A DNA stretch of 20,365 bases from a virus, in IMG/VR virus record IMGVR_UViG_3300018424_000341, positions 1 to 20,365 of that record; one strand, written 5' to 3'. The notes under the pieces are model-generated. The model worked only from the letters and a program-made list of their open reading frames with translations. It was not told the DNA's origin and searched no databases. The translations under genes and the position numbers were made by a program. This document shows, in pieces, positions 6,060-17,443 of the stretch. Within the stretch, counting starts at the first letter, position 1, and every line of letters begins with the position of its first letter.

Positions 6060-6060
6060 C

Positions 6061-6400
6061 TATTTTTCGCAAGGCACTTCATAGACACCAAGTCAGACTA
6101 ACACAGGCAACACATAGGCTCCACACCACCCCGCCGAGGCAGATAATATCGGTATCCTTGACAATCCGTTAAACACGGTGCGAGAATCTGGATTGTGGAC
6201 GGCAAGATACAAAAACGACACAGTATTAAAAAGATGTAGGCTCTGAGAAAAAGCAACCTACGAGTCAGTGTAACTAAACTCTACAAGGTTATACAGACTT
6301 CCGTGAGATTCGTGACGGTAGTGTATGGGGACAGAAGGCTCACCGGTTCCTAGTAGCACCCGAGTTAGAGATGGCGATGCTCATCATGATGACATCATTT
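6061..6400 (+). ncRNA. Candidate structured non-coding RNA (unknown class)
   Basis: No reading frame of useful size exists here on either strand, GC is about 47 % by my count (flanking genes clearly lower), and several stems can be drawn on the top strand: a long hairpin 6152-6210 (GTATC/GATAC and TTG/CAA below ACAATCC 6161-6167 with GGATTGT 6190-6196); GTAGG 6236-6240 with CCTAC 6257-6261; an 11-bp stem 6263-6274/6288-6299 (AGTC/GACT and GTGTAAC/GTTATAC around one A-A mismatch); CCGT 6301-6304 with ACGG 6315-6318. It follows the GIY-YIG gene directly and could be made as the 3' end of that transcript. I compared it by eye with tmRNA, RNase P RNA and group I intron cores and found no match. 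Strand and ends are uncertain. Confidence 0.45.
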
Positions 6401-6422
6401 TTTTCACCCGGCAACGGGTGAA
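6381..6422 (+). terminator. Overlapping palindromes, U7 run and 8-bp GCAA-loop hairpin; probable terminator region
   Basis: TCATCATGATGA (6381-6392) is a perfect palindrome, followed by CATCAT and seven T (to 6404), a plausible rho-independent stop for the rightward 55-47-46 transcript. Directly after is a perfect hairpin: TTCACCCG (6403-6410), GNRA-type loop GCAA, CGGGTGAA (6415-6422). On the other strand the second hairpin is followed by A rather than T, so it would not be a classical leftward terminator; it may protect a 3' end. Confidence 0.5.
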
Positions 6423-6515
6423 TTATGGCTCAACTTTCATGATAACGTTTAGATCTAAAGATCTAAAAATTTCTTACAAGTGAATAAGTGAGTGAAACGA
6501 ACGTATGAACGTAGT
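6423..6515. repeat. Short iterated repeats in the non-coding gap
   Basis: AGATCTAA is present twice in tandem (6451-6458, 6459-6466), the first copy lying in the palindrome TTTAGATCTAAA (6448-6459), and GAACGTA occurs twice (6499-6505, 6507-6513). No gene or further signal is seen in this part. The repeats may be a protein-binding site or slippage remnants. Confidence 0.35.
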
Positions 6516-6536
6516 AAGAAAAGACACGAAGTGTCT
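6516..6536 (-). terminator. Rho-independent terminator for the two leftward oxygenase-like genes
   Basis: On the reverse strand, AGACAC (6536-6531), triloop TTC, GTGTCT (6527-6522) and then TTTCTT form a 6-bp hairpin with a U-rich tail. It overlaps the TAG stop (6537-6535) of the leftward gene, which is typical of compact phage genomes. Confidence 0.6.
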
Positions 6537-7056
6537 ATAATATGGTATCTAAGTATTCTACTGTGTCGTTGTAAGTTTTTCTAATGTTTAACGTAAACAG
6601 TTTGGTAAGTTGATTTATTTCTTTATGATCGCATCCATGTTTTTTAGTAACATCTAAAACTAAAATTTGTTGTGGGTGAATATATTTGTTGTGTGTGGGA
6701 TCTTCATGAATAATGTAAACAGGAAAATTATTTAGGTTGAAAATTATATTGGATTTTCTAGTAAATGGATTTACCCAACCAGTTAAAAAATCTTGGTGTA
6801 ATTGCACAATCTGATTAGGTCTGACATGTTCAAATCCTATACTGTGTTCTGGCAGTATTTCTATAGGGTTTAGAATTTCATTTACTTTATCAATACATGT
6901 TAAATCTTTGAGCATCAAGATATCCTGAGTCATGTCTGGAGTGTCATTACGATGCATAAAATATCCATGATCAGCCGGAGTAGTGTTTAATACTTCTTCC
7001 TCAAGGGATAATAATTCATCTACGTTGTATTTGAAATTATAAATTTTACTAAACAT
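6535..7056 (-). CDS. Putative 2-oxoglutarate/Fe(II)-dependent oxygenase-like protein
   Basis: A 173-residue protein of the double-stranded beta-helix type by motif. H87-x-D89 (VQLHQDF) fits the first two iron ligands, H140 (KKHGCDH) the distal histidine, and R159 (FTLNIRK) the 2-oxoglutarate carboxylate contact. The spacings are those expected of the 2OG-Fe(II) superfamily. Around H140 and R159 it aligns with the neighbouring leftward gene (LH/KHG, then LxINL/FTLNI), so the two look like diverged paralogues. Its ATG is 8 bases inside the end of that gene, so they are co-expressed. Such oxygenases are frequent in marine phages, but substrates are mostly unknown; nucleic-acid or protein hydroxylation is possible. 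Motif-level assignment only. Confidence 0.6.
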   Translation of the reverse strand: MFSKIYNFKYNVDELLSLEEEVLNTTPADHGYFMHRNDTPDMTQDILMLKDLTCIDKVNEILNPIEILPEHSIGFEHVRPNQIVQLHQDFLTGWVNPFTRKSNIIFNLNNFPVYIIHEDPTHNKYIHPQQILVLDVTKKHGCDHKEINQLTKLFTLNIRKTYNDTVEYLDTIL

Positions 7057-7495
7057 TAAAATGTATCCTTGCTTTTTCGTAATCAGTTTTTAAATTTATA
7101 GTCAAAAACTGATAATCGTAATCGTGTTTATTTTCTGACCCATGTAATTTTCTAGTGTTTAACAAAAACATATCGTTAGGCGATATAACTACATGTTCTG
7201 TAACATTGTTGTTGCTGTGAAATATCACAGCATCATTGTCTCCGACATTTACTAGCAAGTTAGATTTTCGTATATGATCTATGTGGGGATCTAACTTGCT
7301 GTTAGCAGGTATTGTTTCTGCACCAATTAAATGGTCATCGTGCAGATTAAATTGTTCCATGAATTGTGTTGTAATCCAGTCGAAATGCTTGATTTGACCT
7401 ATAGGAAAAACACACTGCACAATGTTATTATACTCAAATTCCCAACGTCCAAAGCCTTGTGTTTCCTGTAACTTAGTGTAAATTTGCTTGTACAT
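7049..7495 (-). CDS. Putative small 2-oxoglutarate/Fe(II)-dependent oxygenase-like protein
   Basis: About 148 residues from the ATG at 7495; an in-frame GTG two codons earlier (7501) is an equal alternative, since neither has a clear ribosome site. The HxD...H pattern is clear, numbered from the GTG: H73-x-D75 in KLDPHIDHIR, then VISPNDMFLLNTRKLHG with H120, and a basic residue in FLTINLK about 17 residues on. The stretch LLVNVGDNDAVIFH between them fits beta-helix strands. It lacks other domains. First gene of a two-gene leftward unit (overlap of 8 bases), divergent from the early operon at 7567. Upstream, reverse-strand CATAAATA (7510-7503) resembles a late promoter but would give an almost leaderless mRNA. 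Function beyond the fold is unknown. Confidence 0.62.
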   Translation of the reverse strand: MYKQIYTKLQETQGFGRWEFEYNNIVQCVFPIGQIKHFDWITTQFMEQFNLHDDHLIGAETIPANSKLDPHIDHIRKSNLLVNVGDNDAVIFHSNNNVTEHVVISPNDMFLLNTRKLHGSENKHDYDYQFLTINLKTDYEKARIHFNV

Positions 7496-7531
7496 TTGCA
7501 CATATTTATGGTATTTTTTGTGAAAAAAAGG

Positions 7532-7566: not shown

Positions 7567-7821
7567 ATGGCTAACAAAACACAGGTTGACAATATGAACA
7601 TTGCCAAATCGTATGTACGCATAGATCATTACGGCAAATTGCTTATTCCTACAAATATGTTGGAAAAACTGCTGGAACATGCATTTGTAGCAGATACTGA
7701 TTATGTTGATGGTAAAGATGTTCTTTCAAAACTCGAACGAATTGACCGTGTTAAAGTTCACAGTGCTGATGAAGTAAAAGGAATTTTAATGCATCAAGAA
7801 CTAGGTGGTAACAGTGATTGA
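7567..7821 (+). CDS. Small phage protein of unknown function
   Basis: An 84-residue protein (MANKTQVDNMNIAK). The frame is open from 7549, but that start lies inside the -10 element, so 7567 is taken; a further in-frame ATG (7594, MNIAKSYVRID) is possible if the mRNA is leaderless. No Cys, no membrane segment and no recognised motif. It reads as a short beta part (SYVRIDHYGKLLIP) followed by two or more helices (TNMLEKLLEHAFVAD, VLSKLERIDRVKV, ADEVKGILMHQEL), acidic overall. First gene of the early rightward operon; its stop overlaps the start of the SWIM protein. I do not recognise a family, although small proteins of this type are common near early promoters of T4-like phages. Confidence 0.7.
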   Translation: MANKTQVDNMNIAKSYVRIDHYGKLLIPTNMLEKLLEHAFVADTDYVDGKDVLSKLERIDRVKVHSADEVKGILMHQELGGNSD

Positions 7822-8119
7822 GATATTACAAGAAGTAACTGATTGGGGCGACTACCCAGTTAAAAATGGAATTTATCATGTCAACAGTGCTGGACAACTT
7901 GTTCAGCACAATGACGTTGTATTTAAAAACCCGATTAAGCAATTCAGCAAGTCTTACAGGAAGTTTGTTAAAATAGGCGAACGCCCTGAAGAGTTTAGCA
8001 AAAATGTTATTGTAGTCAATGGTTCAAAAGGCAATACTTACACAATTGAAGATGGTAAGTGTAGTTGCCCTGGTTTTACTTTTAGGGGAGATTGTAAGCA
8101 TGTTAAAGAACATTGTTAG
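7814..8119 (+). CDS. Small SWIM-type zinc-finger protein
   Basis: About 101 residues from a GTG at 7814, chosen because AGGTGG (7803-7808) sits 5 bases upstream; another in-frame GTG at 7805 would overlap that site. The C-terminus is a SWIM-like zinc motif, C83-x-C85-x8-C94-x-H96 (GKCSCPGFTFRGDCKH), preceded by NTYTIEDGK, the usual beta-hairpin entry of SWIM domains. The N-terminal part (VTDWGDYPVKNGIYHVNSAGQLV) looks like a small beta domain, followed by a basic helix (KQFSKSYRKFVK). SWIM fingers bind DNA or partner proteins. The start overlaps the previous stop and its end overlaps the lipoprotein start by 20 bases, so the three genes are coupled. The molecular role is unknown. Confidence 0.75.
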   Translation: MIEILQEVTDWGDYPVKNGIYHVNSAGQLVQHNDVVFKNPIKQFSKSYRKFVKIGERPEEFSKNVIVVNGSKGNTYTIEDGKCSCPGFTFRGDCKHVKEHC

Positions 8120-10442
8120 TTTATTTTTAGTATTGTCTGTGATTGGCTGTGCAAGTGGCGGGGGTTCAGCAGGTATTGCAACAACCACGGTTGCACCTCC
8201 TCCTACCACAACCACTACCAATACTGACAAACGATATCAATTTGATGCATTTTCAGATCAGTACACTGAAGCAACCAGCAAACTAGGATATAACAAAGTC
8301 ACCTATCAAGTAGGCGAGTTTAATAATACTCAGTGGGTAAATGGCAAATACACTGTGGAAGATTTTTCATTTTTGCAGGTTGTTATAGACGGCAGTCACG
8401 GTGGTAAAGATCAAAATGATCCAAACAGTGACGAGTATTCAGAACCAGGTAATTGGATGACCAATGCATCTGTGGTTATAGAAAATGATATCAATCAAGA
8501 CGGCCACAGCGATTTTGTGATTTACATGCAGACGTTTGGTGATAGAAATACATTACCGGGTATGCGAATGTTACAATTTGTAAATGACGGGGAAGGACAT
8601 TTCAAATTAGACTGTAGTGTGTTTGAAAACAATGTGTGTCCTATTGTGTTTGGGGAAGGTTCTGTAATGAATAATCTTGGTTGGTGGCACAACGAAGAAG
8701 CACCTGTACAAGAATACAATATGGGCATAGCACATCAATACGACTTGAACGGCGATGGCAACAAAGACATTTTTAATGTTAGTCAGTTGTGGCTTACTGA
8801 TAGTGGAAAGTTTGTTGACTCCCATACCAATCTACCTGATTTTATGTTTGAAAACTTAAATCCTGATGGTGTTGACGTAGGTATTTTTGTGCATGATCAT
8901 GCAGTCGGTGATCTCAATGGTGACGGATTTAATGATATTTTTATGCCTAATACCACACCAGTGTATTCACAAAATAATGGCTACATGTTTTTTATGCTAA
9001 ACGACGGCAAAGGAAACTTTAAGAACACCAGTTTTAAAGTTGGTCATGCCGGCCATTTTGCAACGTCTACTACTATTGGAGATTTTGACAATGACGGATA
9101 CGGTGATATTGTTTTGGGTTGGAGTAACAATGCATACAAGAATTTAGGTGGCAACAGTGTTGGTGGAATTTACTGGGGTAATAGTGACTCTGATTATACC
9201 AAAGACTACACAGCACTGCCTGCAGGGTATTACGACCAGAACATAGCATTTGATGTACAGTCTATGGATTTTAATAACGATGGATTGTTAGACTTAGTTT
9301 TTGCAAACACTAATGCTGATCCTTACTATCAAGGACATGTATTACAACTAATAGAAAATCTTGGTAATAGACAGTTTAGCCACTTCAAGTTTTTTGACGA
9401 AGGTGCAGAAACTAGTAACCTTGGAGTTGGGCATATTTATATACTAGACTTTGATCATGATGGCAACAATGATATTTTTGTAGGCCCTTACACTGATGCA
9501 TATGTTTTAAAAAATAACGGTGATGGCACATTTGTAAAATACAATCAATTTGCTGTACCCGAAAATAATCCAGATATGTCATTGCTGTTTCCAGTAGAAG
9601 TAGATGGCAAGTACGAATACGATTTTATTGGAATGGATATTTTGTCCATGAGTGAAACACAAACTGTTACAAACTTTTTTATCAGTTTAGATCCCCCGGC
9701 ACAATTACAAGAAATGCATGATGAATTGTTTGACAAATCTATAAATCATGTTCAATCAATATTTGAAAACAAGACTATGTTTCATAACATTAAAAACACT
9801 TCGCTGTCAGATAGTGTATTTTTTGTAAACAATGAACAAAATAATATTGCAGGGTACTCTCATAACTTTGAAAACTTTGGTATTACTTTTGGACAAACAG
9901 ATGATGGCGGCTTGTTATATTTAGACAGACAGCATGACGGATATCATTATGGTATTGGTTATTTTAACAACAGTGTAGACTCATTGAATGTTGGTAAATG
10001 GTATGGTACTGGTACAGCAACAATTGATTTTGAGACTATAAATGCATTTGCTGAAACATTTATACCTTTAAACTCAAATATTTTTATAACATCGGGTGTT
10101 GCATTGTTTAACACAAAAGTGAAAGGCTTTACTGAACAAAATAGTCAATACAATATTTCTGTACAAGATTTTACAATGAACGATTTAGAATTGTACACTG
10201 ATATTACAGGATACAAAAGTACTAAATTTGGAACCACAATGTTAAGTCTAGGACTTAGTTCATATTACAGTTTGGGCAACACTGACATTGTGTGGGACGG
10301 TGGTTTAGTTTCTAAGTTTAAAGAATCTGAGCAAGTTGCTAGAGCAACTCTTACACATACATACAATATTTTTTATGCTAAGGCAACGTTCAGCTCGTTT
10401 GATAGTGACACGTTTGAAATAGGATTTAATTTAAGTTTTTAA
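8100..10442 (+). CDS. FG-GAP/VCBS-repeat lipoprotein with outer-membrane-like C-terminus
   Basis: A 780-residue protein. The ATG at 8100 is chosen (the frame is open from 8019) because it opens a lipoprotein signal: K3, hydrophobic core, lipobox VIGC with lipidated C17, then ASGGG; Ala at +2 favours the outer membrane. GGGGAG lies about 9 bases upstream. A T/P-rich linker follows (about 27-42). Six calcium-binding type DxNxDGxxD motifs begin near residues 130, 215, 271, 328, 390 and 450, spaced mostly 56-62 apart, as in FG-GAP/VCBS beta-propellers. The last 180 residues have alternating polar/hydrophobic strands and end in Phe (FEIGFNLSF), the hallmark of outer-membrane beta-barrels. It is last in the early operon and not next to virion genes on its strand. 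Role unknown: host-surface change or superinfection block is inferred. Its stop abuts the convergent gene 51-like stop with no gap. Confidence 0.85.
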   Translation: MLKNIVSLFLVLSVIGCASGGGSAGIATTTVAPPPTTTTTNTDKRYQFDAFSDQYTEATSKLGYNKVTYQVGEFNNTQWVNGKYTVEDFSFLQVVIDGSHGGKDQNDPNSDEYSEPGNWMTNASVVIENDINQDGHSDFVIYMQTFGDRNTLPGMRMLQFVNDGEGHFKLDCSVFENNVCPIVFGEGSVMNNLGWWHNEEAPVQEYNMGIAHQYDLNGDGNKDIFNVSQLWLTDSGKFVDSHTNLPDFMFENLNPDGVDVGIFVHDHAVGDLNGDGFNDIFMPNTTPVYSQNNGYMFFMLNDGKGNFKNTSFKVGHAGHFATSTTIGDFDNDGYGDIVLGWSNNAYKNLGGNSVGGIYWGNSDSDYTKDYTALPAGYYDQNIAFDVQSMDFNNDGLLDLVFANTNADPYYQGHVLQLIENLGNRQFSHFKFFDEGAETSNLGVGHIYILDFDHDGNNDIFVGPYTDAYVLKNNGDGTFVKYNQFAVPENNPDMSLLFPVEVDGKYEYDFIGMDILSMSETQTVTNFFISLDPPAQLQEMHDELFDKSINHVQSIFENKTMFHNIKNTSLSDSVFFVNNEQNNIAGYSHNFENFGITFGQTDDGGLLYLDRQHDGYHYGIGYFNNSVDSLNVGKWYGTGTATIDFETINAFAETFIPLNSNIFITSGVALFNTKVKGFTEQNSQYNISVQDFTMNDLELYTDITGYKSTKFGTTMLSLGLSSYYSLGNTDIVWDGGLVSKFKESEQVARATLTHTYNIFYAKATFSSFDSDTFEIGFNLSF

Positions 10443-10679
10443 TTACATCCAGTCGCCGCTTTTATCACCACTCTTTGCTTTATTATATCTGTTTAAGGTA
10501 TTGATTAAAAGCTCTCTTTCCACAGGACTAAGGTGCCAAGCCTCTGTATAGGTAACGGCACCTTCACTGTATATAGCCAACTCTGCTACTTGTTTTAGAA
10601 TCTGTTTTTGATCTTTATCGAGTTTACCTAAGTAACCAGTAATTTCTTCTGGTTCGGCTGACCCTAGGAACCCGTGAAA
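10443..10679 (-). CDS. gp51: gp51-like frame, made as a -1 frameshift extension of gp26
   Basis: In the -1 frame relative to gene 26, the reverse strand codes for 78 residues from the slip site to the TAA at 10445-10443 (FHGFLGSAEPEEITGYLGKL..., then EGAVTYTEAWHLSPVERELLINTLNRYN, ending SGDWM). The latter matches what I recall of gp51, the T4 baseplate-hub assembly factor encoded right after 26. There is no ATG, GTG or TTG between the in-frame TGA at 10694-10692 and residue 34 of this stretch, so ordinary initiation cannot make the whole conserved protein. The frame opens exactly at the gene 26 heptamer A-AAT-TTT. A gp26-gp51 fusion by frameshifting is the simplest reading; initiation at an ATT codon is the less likely alternative. 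Confidence 0.75.
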   Translation of the reverse strand, partial: FHGFLGSAEPEEITGYLGKLDKDQKQILKQVAELAIYSEGAVTYTEAWHLSPVERELLINTLNRYNKAKSGDKSGDWM

Positions 10680-11553: not shown

Positions 11554-11561
11554 GATAAATA
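11554..11561 (+). promoter_or_regulatory. Late promoter, GATAAATA type, for the tape measure gene
   Basis: ATGATAAATATAAC matches the extended form at the baseplate and portal sites. It lies about 90 bases before the ATG at 11650, in the 119-base divergent gap between 26 and the tape measure gene. A leader of about 80 bases, A/T-rich, would follow. Confidence 0.65.
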
Positions 11562-15733: not shown

Positions 15734-17443
15734 ATGGCAACTTGGCGAAAATATTTTAATAGTACTAACAGCGGTCTTCCTGTAAATGTTACAGGTGAAG
15801 GCGTTGATGGCTATAGTACTGCTCATACCCGTTATAGCAGTTGGTTACCTGAAGTTTATGCAGGAAGTCCTAACAGACTTATGCGTTATATTCAGTACGA
15901 TCAAATGGATAATGACTTAGAAATAAATGCTGGATTAGACATTATTGCAGAATTTAGTTCTCAAGATGACGAATACACAGAATTACCATTTGTGTTAAAA
16001 TTTACTGAAGACCCTAGCGAAACTGAAATGAAGATTCTCAGCAAATCATTAGATCAGTGGAACAAATTAAATGACTTAAGAAGACGTGCATTTAAAATAG
16101 TTCGTAGCACAATCAAATACGGCGATCAGTTTTTTATTAGAGATCCAGAAACATACAAATTATTTTGGGTGGATCCAGCCAACATAGAAAAAGTTGTTGT
16201 AAACGAAAGCGAAGGCAAAAAAATTGAAACATATTTTATCAAAAATCTTGATGCTAACTTTGAGCAATTAGCGGCCACAAGTGTATCGCCTATACATGCT
16301 AGACCTTATGGAAGTGGTCAAGGCCTCACAGGAATGTATTCATCGGTTGGATCAACAGTAGGAAATTACCAAACTCAAACAGGCGACTCGGGTGCTACCT
16401 ATGGAACACCTGTAGATGCACAACATGTAGTGCATATCAGTTTAACCGAAGGCATGGATCACAACTGGCCTTTTGGTGTTAGTGTATTAGAACCAGTATT
16501 TAAAGTTTTCAAGCAGAAGGAACTGCTTGAAGACTCCATTATTATTTACAGAGTGCATAGAGCACCTGAAAGACGTGTGTTCTTTATTGATGTTGGTAAC
16601 ATGCCACCCCATAAAGCACAACAATACTTAGAACGTGTTAAGTATGAAGTACAGCAAAAACGTGTTCCTAACAAAAACAAGGACGGTGGTAATGTAGCAG
16701 ATGCCGCATACAATCCAATGAGTATGCTTGAAGACTACTTCTTTGCACAAACAGCAGATGGTAGAGGTTCAAAAGTAGACACACTACCAGGCGGTGAAAA
16801 TTTAGGTCAAATTGACGACTTAAAATATTTCAACAACAAATTGATTAGAGGACTTAGAGTACCTAGTTCTTATCTACCTACTGGACCAGATGATGGTACA
16901 GCACAATTCAACGATGGTAAAGTGGGTGTAGCATATATTCAAGAGCACCAATTTGCAAAATATTGTGAAAGGTTACAAAAGCAGATTATCAGAAACTTAG
17001 ATAGAGAATTTAAAATGTTTTTGAATTACAAAGGCATTGAAATTGATAACAGCACTTTTAACTTGGAATTTACTAAACCACAAAACTTTAGTTCTTACAG
17101 AGAATTGGATTTAGACACACAACGAGCACAACTGTTTACCAGTTTAGAAGCAGTACCATATCTTTCACAACAGTTTAAACTGAAAAAATATTTAGGCTTG
17201 ACTGAGGAAGAAATGAATGACAATGAACACTATTGGAAAATGGAAAATCAATACACAAGTGATAATTCTCAGCAAGTAGGTTTGAGAAACGTAGGTGTTA
17301 GACCAGGTCCTAGTGCAGATTTAGATTTAGATGCACCAGTTGAAGATCTTCCTATGCCCGAAGATGACATACAAACACCCGACGTTGATGTAATGGGCGC
17401 CGGTAACCCAGAGATTGGCGGACAGACGCCAGGCGGAGTATAA
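15734..17443 (+). CDS. gp20: Portal vertex protein gp20
   Basis: A 569-residue protein, close to T4 gp20 (524). The region at about 270-390 holds the strongly conserved block used as a marker of marine T4-like phages: IIYRVHRAPERRVFFIDVGNMP, YLERVKYEVQQKRVPNKNKDGG, YNPMSMLEDYFFAQTADGRGSKVDTLPGG, and LIRGLRVPSSYLPTG. Twelve copies form the ring at the capsid vertex through which DNA enters and leaves and to which the neck attaches. The C-terminal tail (about 530-569) is acidic, then Gly/Pro-rich (GGQTPGGV). The start has AAAGGA 8 bases upstream and a late promoter just before it. The next gene starts one base after the stop. Confidence 0.95.
   Translation: MATWRKYFNSTNSGLPVNVTGEGVDGYSTAHTRYSSWLPEVYAGSPNRLMRYIQYDQMDNDLEINAGLDIIAEFSSQDDEYTELPFVLKFTEDPSETEMKILSKSLDQWNKLNDLRRRAFKIVRSTIKYGDQFFIRDPETYKLFWVDPANIEKVVVNESEGKKIETYFIKNLDANFEQLAATSVSPIHARPYGSGQGLTGMYSSVGSTVGNYQTQTGDSGATYGTPVDAQHVVHISLTEGMDHNWPFGVSVLEPVFKVFKQKELLEDSIIIYRVHRAPERRVFFIDVGNMPPHKAQQYLERVKYEVQQKRVPNKNKDGGNVADAAYNPMSMLEDYFFAQTADGRGSKVDTLPGGENLGQIDDLKYFNNKLIRGLRVPSSYLPTGPDDGTAQFNDGKVGVAYIQEHQFAKYCERLQKQIIRNLDREFKMFLNYKGIEIDNSTFNLEFTKPQNFSSYRELDLDTQRAQLFTSLEAVPYLSQQFKLKKYLGLTEEEMNDNEHYWKMENQYTSDNSQQVGLRNVGVRPGPSADLDLDAPVEDLPMPEDDIQTPDVDVMGAGNPEIGGQTPGGV

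What the first reader, a model, noticed from the sequence alone, without database searches (positions are those of the whole stretch)
8100..10442. Phage-encoded surface lipoprotein with six FG-GAP/VCBS calcium repeats and an outer-membrane C-terminus
A 780-residue protein with a lipobox (VIGC), a calcium-type propeller and a C-terminal part ending in Phe like a beta-barrel is unusual for a tailed phage. It sits in an early-promoter operon rather than with the virion genes on its strand, so it is more likely to remodel the host surface (superinfection block, adhesion, or aggregation) than to be a tail part. The combination of lipid anchor and barrel-like end is itself odd, since either alone would suffice for membrane attachment.
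Basis: partly seen in the sequence, partly recalled or inferred. Interest (0 to 1): 0.8.

Follow-up and report, generated by a model that had tools for sequence, protein, structure and literature searches.

The report
Phage-encoded autotransporter-like surface lipoprotein
An uncultured large T4-like phage and its relatives carry an early-type gene for a protein that appears built to insert itself into the infected bacterium's outer membrane and display an integrin-like propeller on the cell surface, probably to change what can stick to or infect that cell.

Summary
The 780-aa gene at 8100-10442 has a lipobox (VIG-C17), six FG-GAP motifs (shuffled mean 0.02) and a C-terminal outer-membrane-type domain. 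AlphaFold2 on 11 homologues gives that domain (pLDDT 88, pTM 0.81) as a long helix plus 12 strands; its best PDB matches are type Va autotransporter translocators (EspP, NalP, EstA). No sequence link to Pfam Autotransporter was found (hhalign probability 2%), so it looks like one in fold but is not filed in that family. Lipid anchor plus barrel is not paradoxical: NalP has both.

The gene is fixed in a family of uncultured T4-like phages distantly related to PA5oct/Paride (21 other contigs, about 33-95% identity, dN/dS 0.05-0.18). It travels with a small SWIM zinc-finger ORF behind a strong sigma70-type promoter, while virion blocks carry GATAAATA late-type motifs; the early-promoter claim is supported. 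In one relative the two-gene cassette sits about 67 kb away and the usual site lacks it.

No cellular homologue was found. Most likely: early surface display on infected cells by autotransport, for receptor masking/superinfection exclusion or cell-cell capture. Function is untested.

The parts
8100..10442 (+). 780-aa autotransporter-like surface lipoprotein gene (whole)
   Evidence: homologues
8100..8150 (+). lipoprotein signal peptide, lipobox V-I-G-C17 (Cys codon 8148-8150), Ala at +2
   Evidence: Cys and CASGGG invariant in homologues
8151..8231 (+). Gly/Ser then Pro/Thr-rich flexible linker (residues 18-44)
   Evidence: sequence
8232..9689 (+). FG-GAP propeller passenger (residues 45-530) with six Ca-type motifs starting at 8487, 8742, 8910, 9081, 9267 and 9447
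   Evidence: Pfam FG-GAP_3 1.2e-20; motif scan; integrin alpha-4 is the nearest solved sequence, E 1.3e-4 with profile
9693..9806 (+). predicted helices (residues 532-562, 564-569), pore-helix-like linker before the barrel
   Evidence: AF2
9813..10439 (+). predicted 12-strand outer-membrane barrel (residues 572-780), last strand TFEIGFNLSF
   Evidence: AF2; Foldseek
7814..8119 (+). SWIM zinc-finger ORF, overlaps the lipoprotein start by 20 bp (likely translational coupling); partner gene of the cassette
   Evidence: Pfam SWIM 1.9e-4; linked in the relatives, including the relocated cassette of L066
7532..7560 (+). sigma70-type promoter TTGACT-17-CATAAT with extended -10 TG, upstream of the SWIM-lipoprotein operon
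7567..7821 (+). small ORF between promoter and SWIM gene, found only in the window and L002 (start codon uncertain)
11554..11561 (+). GATAAATA late-type motif upstream of the tape-measure-like gene (others: 1887 +, 1884 -, 11611 -, 15706 +); none upstream of the lipoprotein operon

Best explanation
A phage-encoded, lipidated, autotransporter-like protein. It is made early from a host-type promoter, exported by Sec and lipidated at Cys17, and carried to the outer membrane. Its C-terminal helix plus 12-strand barrel is inserted by the host BAM machinery and lets the N-terminal FG-GAP propeller pass to the outside, where it stays held by the barrel and/or the lipid. The displayed Ca-type propeller binds a surface ligand and so alters the infected cell's surface, most likely masking a receptor against superinfection (about 0.35 on its own), or else holding neighbouring cells close (about 0.25). 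Shown from sequence: lipobox, repeats, gene fixation, promoter type. Predicted: barrel fold. Inferred: translocation, early expression in vivo and ligand function. The confidence given is for early host-surface display, not for one particular function.
For: Lipobox and six motifs. AF2 helix + 12 strands, pLDDT 88, pTM 0.81. Foldseek top PDB hits are EspP 5.8e-6, NalP 2.0e-5, EstA 5.1e-5 and AaaA 7.9e-5, i.e. autotransporter translocators; top viral hits are phage proteins named 'Autotransporter beta-domain'. The strict sigma70 pattern occurs at only two places in the window (expected 0.25), before gp55 and before this operon, and the operon's copy is kept in the relatives. Virion blocks carry GATAAATA instead. 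Purifying selection, dN/dS 0.05-0.18. The SWIM-lipoprotein pair is kept even when relocated. Lipidated autotransporter precedent NalP.
Against: No profile link to PF03797. Strand amphipathicity over the whole barrel is not above shuffles, so the barrel rests on the AF2 model. Foldseek TM-scores are moderate (0.53-0.63). The propeller is as conserved as core genes within the main group (78-80%), less expected if it were in an arms race with rival phages. No expression, localisation or virion data; host unknown.
Confidence: 0.66

Rival explanations
1. Outer-membrane barrel with the propeller kept in the periplasm: lipid in the inner leaflet, barrel anchoring it, with the protein acting from inside, for example on envelope assembly or on blocking incoming phage DNA.
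For: The lipid anchor alone would put the N-terminus on the inner leaflet; no translocation data exist.
Against: The helix plus 12-strand layout best matches translocators whose passenger is outside; FG-GAP propellers such as those of integrins are extracellular ligand binders (general knowledge).
Confidence: 0.15
2. A virion or tail-associated adhesin encoded away from the tail cluster.
For: It lies next to the baseplate-hub and tape-measure genes; its divergence from L053 and L066 is of the same order as that of tail proteins.
Against: Signal peptide, lipobox and barrel would send it to the host envelope; sigma70 promoter and no GATAAATA motif upstream; absent from the corresponding place in PA5oct and Paride.
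Confidence: 0.06
3. Host-nutrition aid: a surface binding or uptake protein that helps the infected cell capture substrate.
For: Conserved propeller; related uncultured phages carry other host-like modules (radical SAM, carbamoyltransferase).
Against: No transporter partner beside it; the barrel is small with a predicted helix before it and shows no TonB-receptor features.
Confidence: 0.1
4. FapF-like export channel that secretes another phage protein rather than its own passenger.
For: FapF also appears in the Foldseek list (E 5e-4); clade D relatives carry a curli-type operon.
Against: Weaker match and much higher rmsd than EspP/NalP; an N-terminal passenger is fused to the barrel; no conserved exported partner beside it except the SWIM ORF, which has no signal peptide.
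Confidence: 0.03

Closest known systems
NalP (Neisseria lipidated subtilisin-like autotransporter) and other type Va autotransporters (EspP, EstA)
   Same: Signal peptide with lipobox (NalP), N-terminal passenger, helix and 12-strand C-terminal barrel.
   Different: No sequence relation detected to PF03797 (hhalign 2%); passenger is an FG-GAP propeller, not a protease, esterase or beta-helix; encoded by a phage with an early-type promoter.
Phage superinfection-exclusion envelope lipoproteins (T5 Llp, phi80 Cor; from general knowledge)
   Same: Early, lipidated, outer-membrane proteins that act on receptors.
   Different: Those are small and lack a propeller and barrel; function here is not tested.
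Phage curli (T8SS) operons in pelagiphages (PMC7029224, PMC9599517)
   Same: Phages equipping the infected cell's outer surface; proposed roles are superinfection block or 'sibling capture'. Relatives in clade D carry such an operon too.
   Different: Different machinery (CsgG/CsgF/curlin), not an autotransporter.
'Autotransporter beta-domain' proteins of uncultured Caudovirales in BFVD (A0A6J5KUW0, A0A6J5R861)
   Same: Best viral fold matches, 5.6e-7 and 3.4e-4.
   Different: 11-13% identity; passenger type not examined; no paper on them found.
FG-GAP proteins of viruses of eukaryotes (prasinovirus MntV1, PMC11467894)
   Same: FG-GAP repeats in a virus.
   Different: Viruses of algae; no lipobox or barrel mentioned in the passages read.

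Membership tests
Type Va autotransporter (by mechanism/fold) | N-terminal Sec signal peptide | tested here: met
   Lipoprotein signal peptide by sequence; no SignalP run
Type Va autotransporter (by mechanism/fold) | C-terminal 12-strand barrel preceded by a helix | tested here: met
   AF2; Foldseek to EspP/NalP/EstA; predicted, not solved
Type Va autotransporter (by mechanism/fold) | C-terminal aromatic beta-signal | tested here: met
   DTFEIGFNLSF in the window; L066 ends in Leu
Type Va autotransporter (by mechanism/fold) | Passenger crosses to the cell surface | not testable with these tools
   Needs protease shaving or labelling
Pfam PF03797 Autotransporter (sequence family) | Profile match | tested here: not met
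   No Pfam hit; hhalign against 13 PF03797 domains gives probability 2%
FG-GAP/VCBS repeat proteins | Several FG-GAP repeats with DxDxDG-type motifs | tested here: met
   PF13517 1.2e-20; six motifs
Outer-membrane lipoprotein | Lipobox [LVI][ASTVI][GAS]C with no Asp at +2 | tested here: met
   VIGC-A; invariant Cys-Ala in homologues
Superinfection-exclusion protein | Blocks secondary infection | not testable with these tools
   No PADLOC match; needs an infection assay

The most novel reading that the evidence does not exclude
A phage-specific class of self-translocating surface proteins, unrelated in detectable sequence to bacterial autotransporters, lets a lytic phage display an integrin-like propeller on the infected cell in the early phase using only host Sec, lipidation and BAM machinery. 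The passenger exists in exchangeable allelic classes (about 33% identical), carried as a mobile two-gene cassette with a zinc-finger partner, to control who else can attach to that cell.
Probability: 0.35. Interest if true: 0.8.

Novelty: new variant of a known kind. Interest (0 to 1): 0.63.

Why it matters
Known phage superinfection-exclusion proteins are mostly small lipoproteins or inner-membrane proteins (general knowledge). A full autotransporter-type display protein behind an early-type promoter would be a one-gene way to repaint a host surface with no dedicated secretion system, useful in hosts that lack one. A 2024 paper called a prasinovirus possibly the first virus confirmed to have FG-GAP repeats (PMC11467894); here is a whole phage family that carries them. 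It gives a directly testable case of how such phages alter the infected cell's surface, alongside the unexplained phage curli operons.

Tried and rejected
Single-sequence AF2 of the full protein was useless (pLDDT 32). tblastn of the protein in 50,697 phage records: none even at E=10. Cellular homologues: a family-based peptide-pattern scan and a signature-pattern scan of 84,980 genomes gave only chance matches; the barrel profile in 398 genomes of the phylum and 369 of the class of the Colwellia genome, and 296 of the phylum of Draconibacterium, gave none, apart from one E=0.009 hit that is a TonB-dependent receptor. The same search finds 6 of 6 phage contigs. In plasmids only generic FG-GAP proteins match, over the propeller. 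A looser H-x-A-x-GD pattern in viral contigs gave unrelated ORFs. A strand-amphipathicity statistic was not significant, so it is not used as support. GATAAATA count alone is not significant (5 against 1.5); its placement before the same genes in the clades is the argument. PADLOC: no hit. The weak Pfam 'Viral movement protein' match (E=0.02-0.06, below cut-off) was dismissed as chance.

Full report
What is there. The window is a 20,365-base virus record of a T4-like phage: portal (PF07230, 3e-108), T4-type baseplate hub, late sigma factor gp55, and two nuclease-subunit genes of the gp47/gp46 kind (the latter by gene order and naming in Paride). Portal and gp55 are nearest, among named phages, to Pseudomonas phages of the PA5oct/Paride kind (about 55% and 48% identity). 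Paride and PA5oct share the order gp55 - gp47 - gp46 - ... - hub - large gene - portal and have small hypothetical genes, not an FG-GAP gene, in the gap.

The finding's gene (8100-10442) is real: lipobox, Gly/Ser and Pro/Thr linker, six FG-GAP motifs, C-terminal domain. Its nearest relatives in solved structures by sequence are integrin alpha-4 propellers, over about 80 residues only.

Relatives. IMG/VR contigs give 95% (L002), 72-75% (L003-L012), about 65% (L078, L079, L082, L084, L094), 34% (L053/L054) and 35% (L065-L067) homologues, 21 contigs besides two fragments. In the first four groups the gene sits in the same spot wherever neighbours were read. dN/dS against L002 is 0.05 (propeller) and 0.12 (barrel); against L003, 0.06 and 0.16 (synonymous sites are near saturation in the latter). 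Within the main group the propeller (78-80%) is as conserved as gp46 (76-81%) and more so than the barrel (60-72%). The L053 type has gp46 at 78% but this protein at 34%, so the protein there is a distant allele, about as divergent as tail proteins of the same phage pair (35% against 42-47% for tape-measure, hub-like and fibre genes).

Cassette. The small SWIM zinc-finger ORF upstream overlaps the start by 20 bp and accompanies the gene in the relatives. In G401 (the contig of L066) the pair lies at 80.4-83.2 kb while the orthologous place, between hub (ends 12345) and the GIY-YIG gene (starts 13071), holds no such gene. The pair is therefore a two-gene unit that can relocate with its own promoter. 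SWIM identity to the window (79-81%) is far above that of the lipoprotein (35%) for that contig, which suggests exchange of the lipoprotein behind the SWIM gene.

Timing. A strict sigma70 pattern (TTGACN-15/18-[CT]ATAAT) occurs at only two places in the window, before gp55 (1924) and before this operon (7532); shuffles give 0.25. The operon's copy recurs in L002, L003, L006, L010-L012, L066, L078 and L094; in L063 the nearest site is farther upstream (6800), so less clearly tied to the cassette. In G400 only two such sites occur in the 74 kb counted. GATAAATA, resembling the T4 late TATAAATA, lies before wedge, hub, tape-measure, portal and gp55 in the window and in the same places in L002, L003, L006 and L010.

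Fold. AF2 on the 250 C-terminal residues with 11 homologues: helix 2-32, 34-39, then 12 main strands; pLDDT 88, pTM 0.81. Foldseek against PDB: EspP, NalP, EstA, AaaA first (5.8e-6 to 7.9e-5; TM 0.53-0.63); against viral models: two phage 'Autotransporter beta-domain' proteins (5.6e-7, 3.4e-4) and, weakly (0.019), a phage protein named for VCBS repeats. hhalign with 13 PF03797 domains: no relation. So: it resembles a type Va translocator by predicted fold, but is not a demonstrated member of the sequence family. The domain is nearly constant in length (250-253 aa) down to 32% identity, as expected of a compact barrel.

Mechanism. NalP is both lipidated and barrel-bearing; after transport its passenger is held at the surface by the lipid (PMC7857515, PMC5472700). 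By analogy the phage propeller would be displayed outside soon after infection. I favour receptor masking or superinfection exclusion: early-type promoter; distant alleles at one locus. Cell capture by adhesion is the close second, as proposed for pelagiphage curli (PMC7029224, PMC9599517). The high conservation of the propeller within the main group fits a fixed host ligand better than an arms race. These functional steps are inference.

Novelty. No paper in the searched library describes a phage autotransporter of this kind or a phage FG-GAP lipoprotein (one paper mentions a YadA-like anchor domain in N4-like viruses), though deposited phage proteins with autotransporter names exist. Rating: new variant of a known kind.

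Noticed in passing
L119:16963-19312 (contig of L094), also G405 and G406: Clade D relatives carry a curli-type operon: CsgF-like protein, CsgG (PF03783, 3.4e-48) and a curlin-repeat-like protein, with a GATAAATA motif upstream at 16296. Known in pelagiphages; here in a different T4-like lineage, and apparently with its own curlin-like protein.
   Followed up: partly
L118:9626-11087: A 425-aa secreted CxxCH (c-type-haem-like) protein and a 64-aa lipoprotein are inserted between the GIY-YIG and 2OG-like genes of clade D phages; no Pfam match for the former.
   Followed up: partly
window 6060-6535: About 475 bp without a long ORF between the GIY-YIG gene and the minus-strand pair; no Rfam match in the window.
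   Followed up: no
window 10443-10664 (-): Small minus-strand reading frame following the hub gene, similar by eye to a 65-aa ORF beside the hub gene in G401; possibly a small baseplate factor.
   Followed up: no
window 6535-7501 (-): Two adjacent small genes that resemble 2-oxoglutarate oxygenase folds by motif only (no Pfam or PHROG hit), next to the cassette in the main group.
   Followed up: no
L121:2831-5776 and G400/G401/G402: Radical SAM/SPASM genes, a carbamoyltransferase and a giant ORF of up to 5,983 codons in these phage contigs.
   Followed up: no
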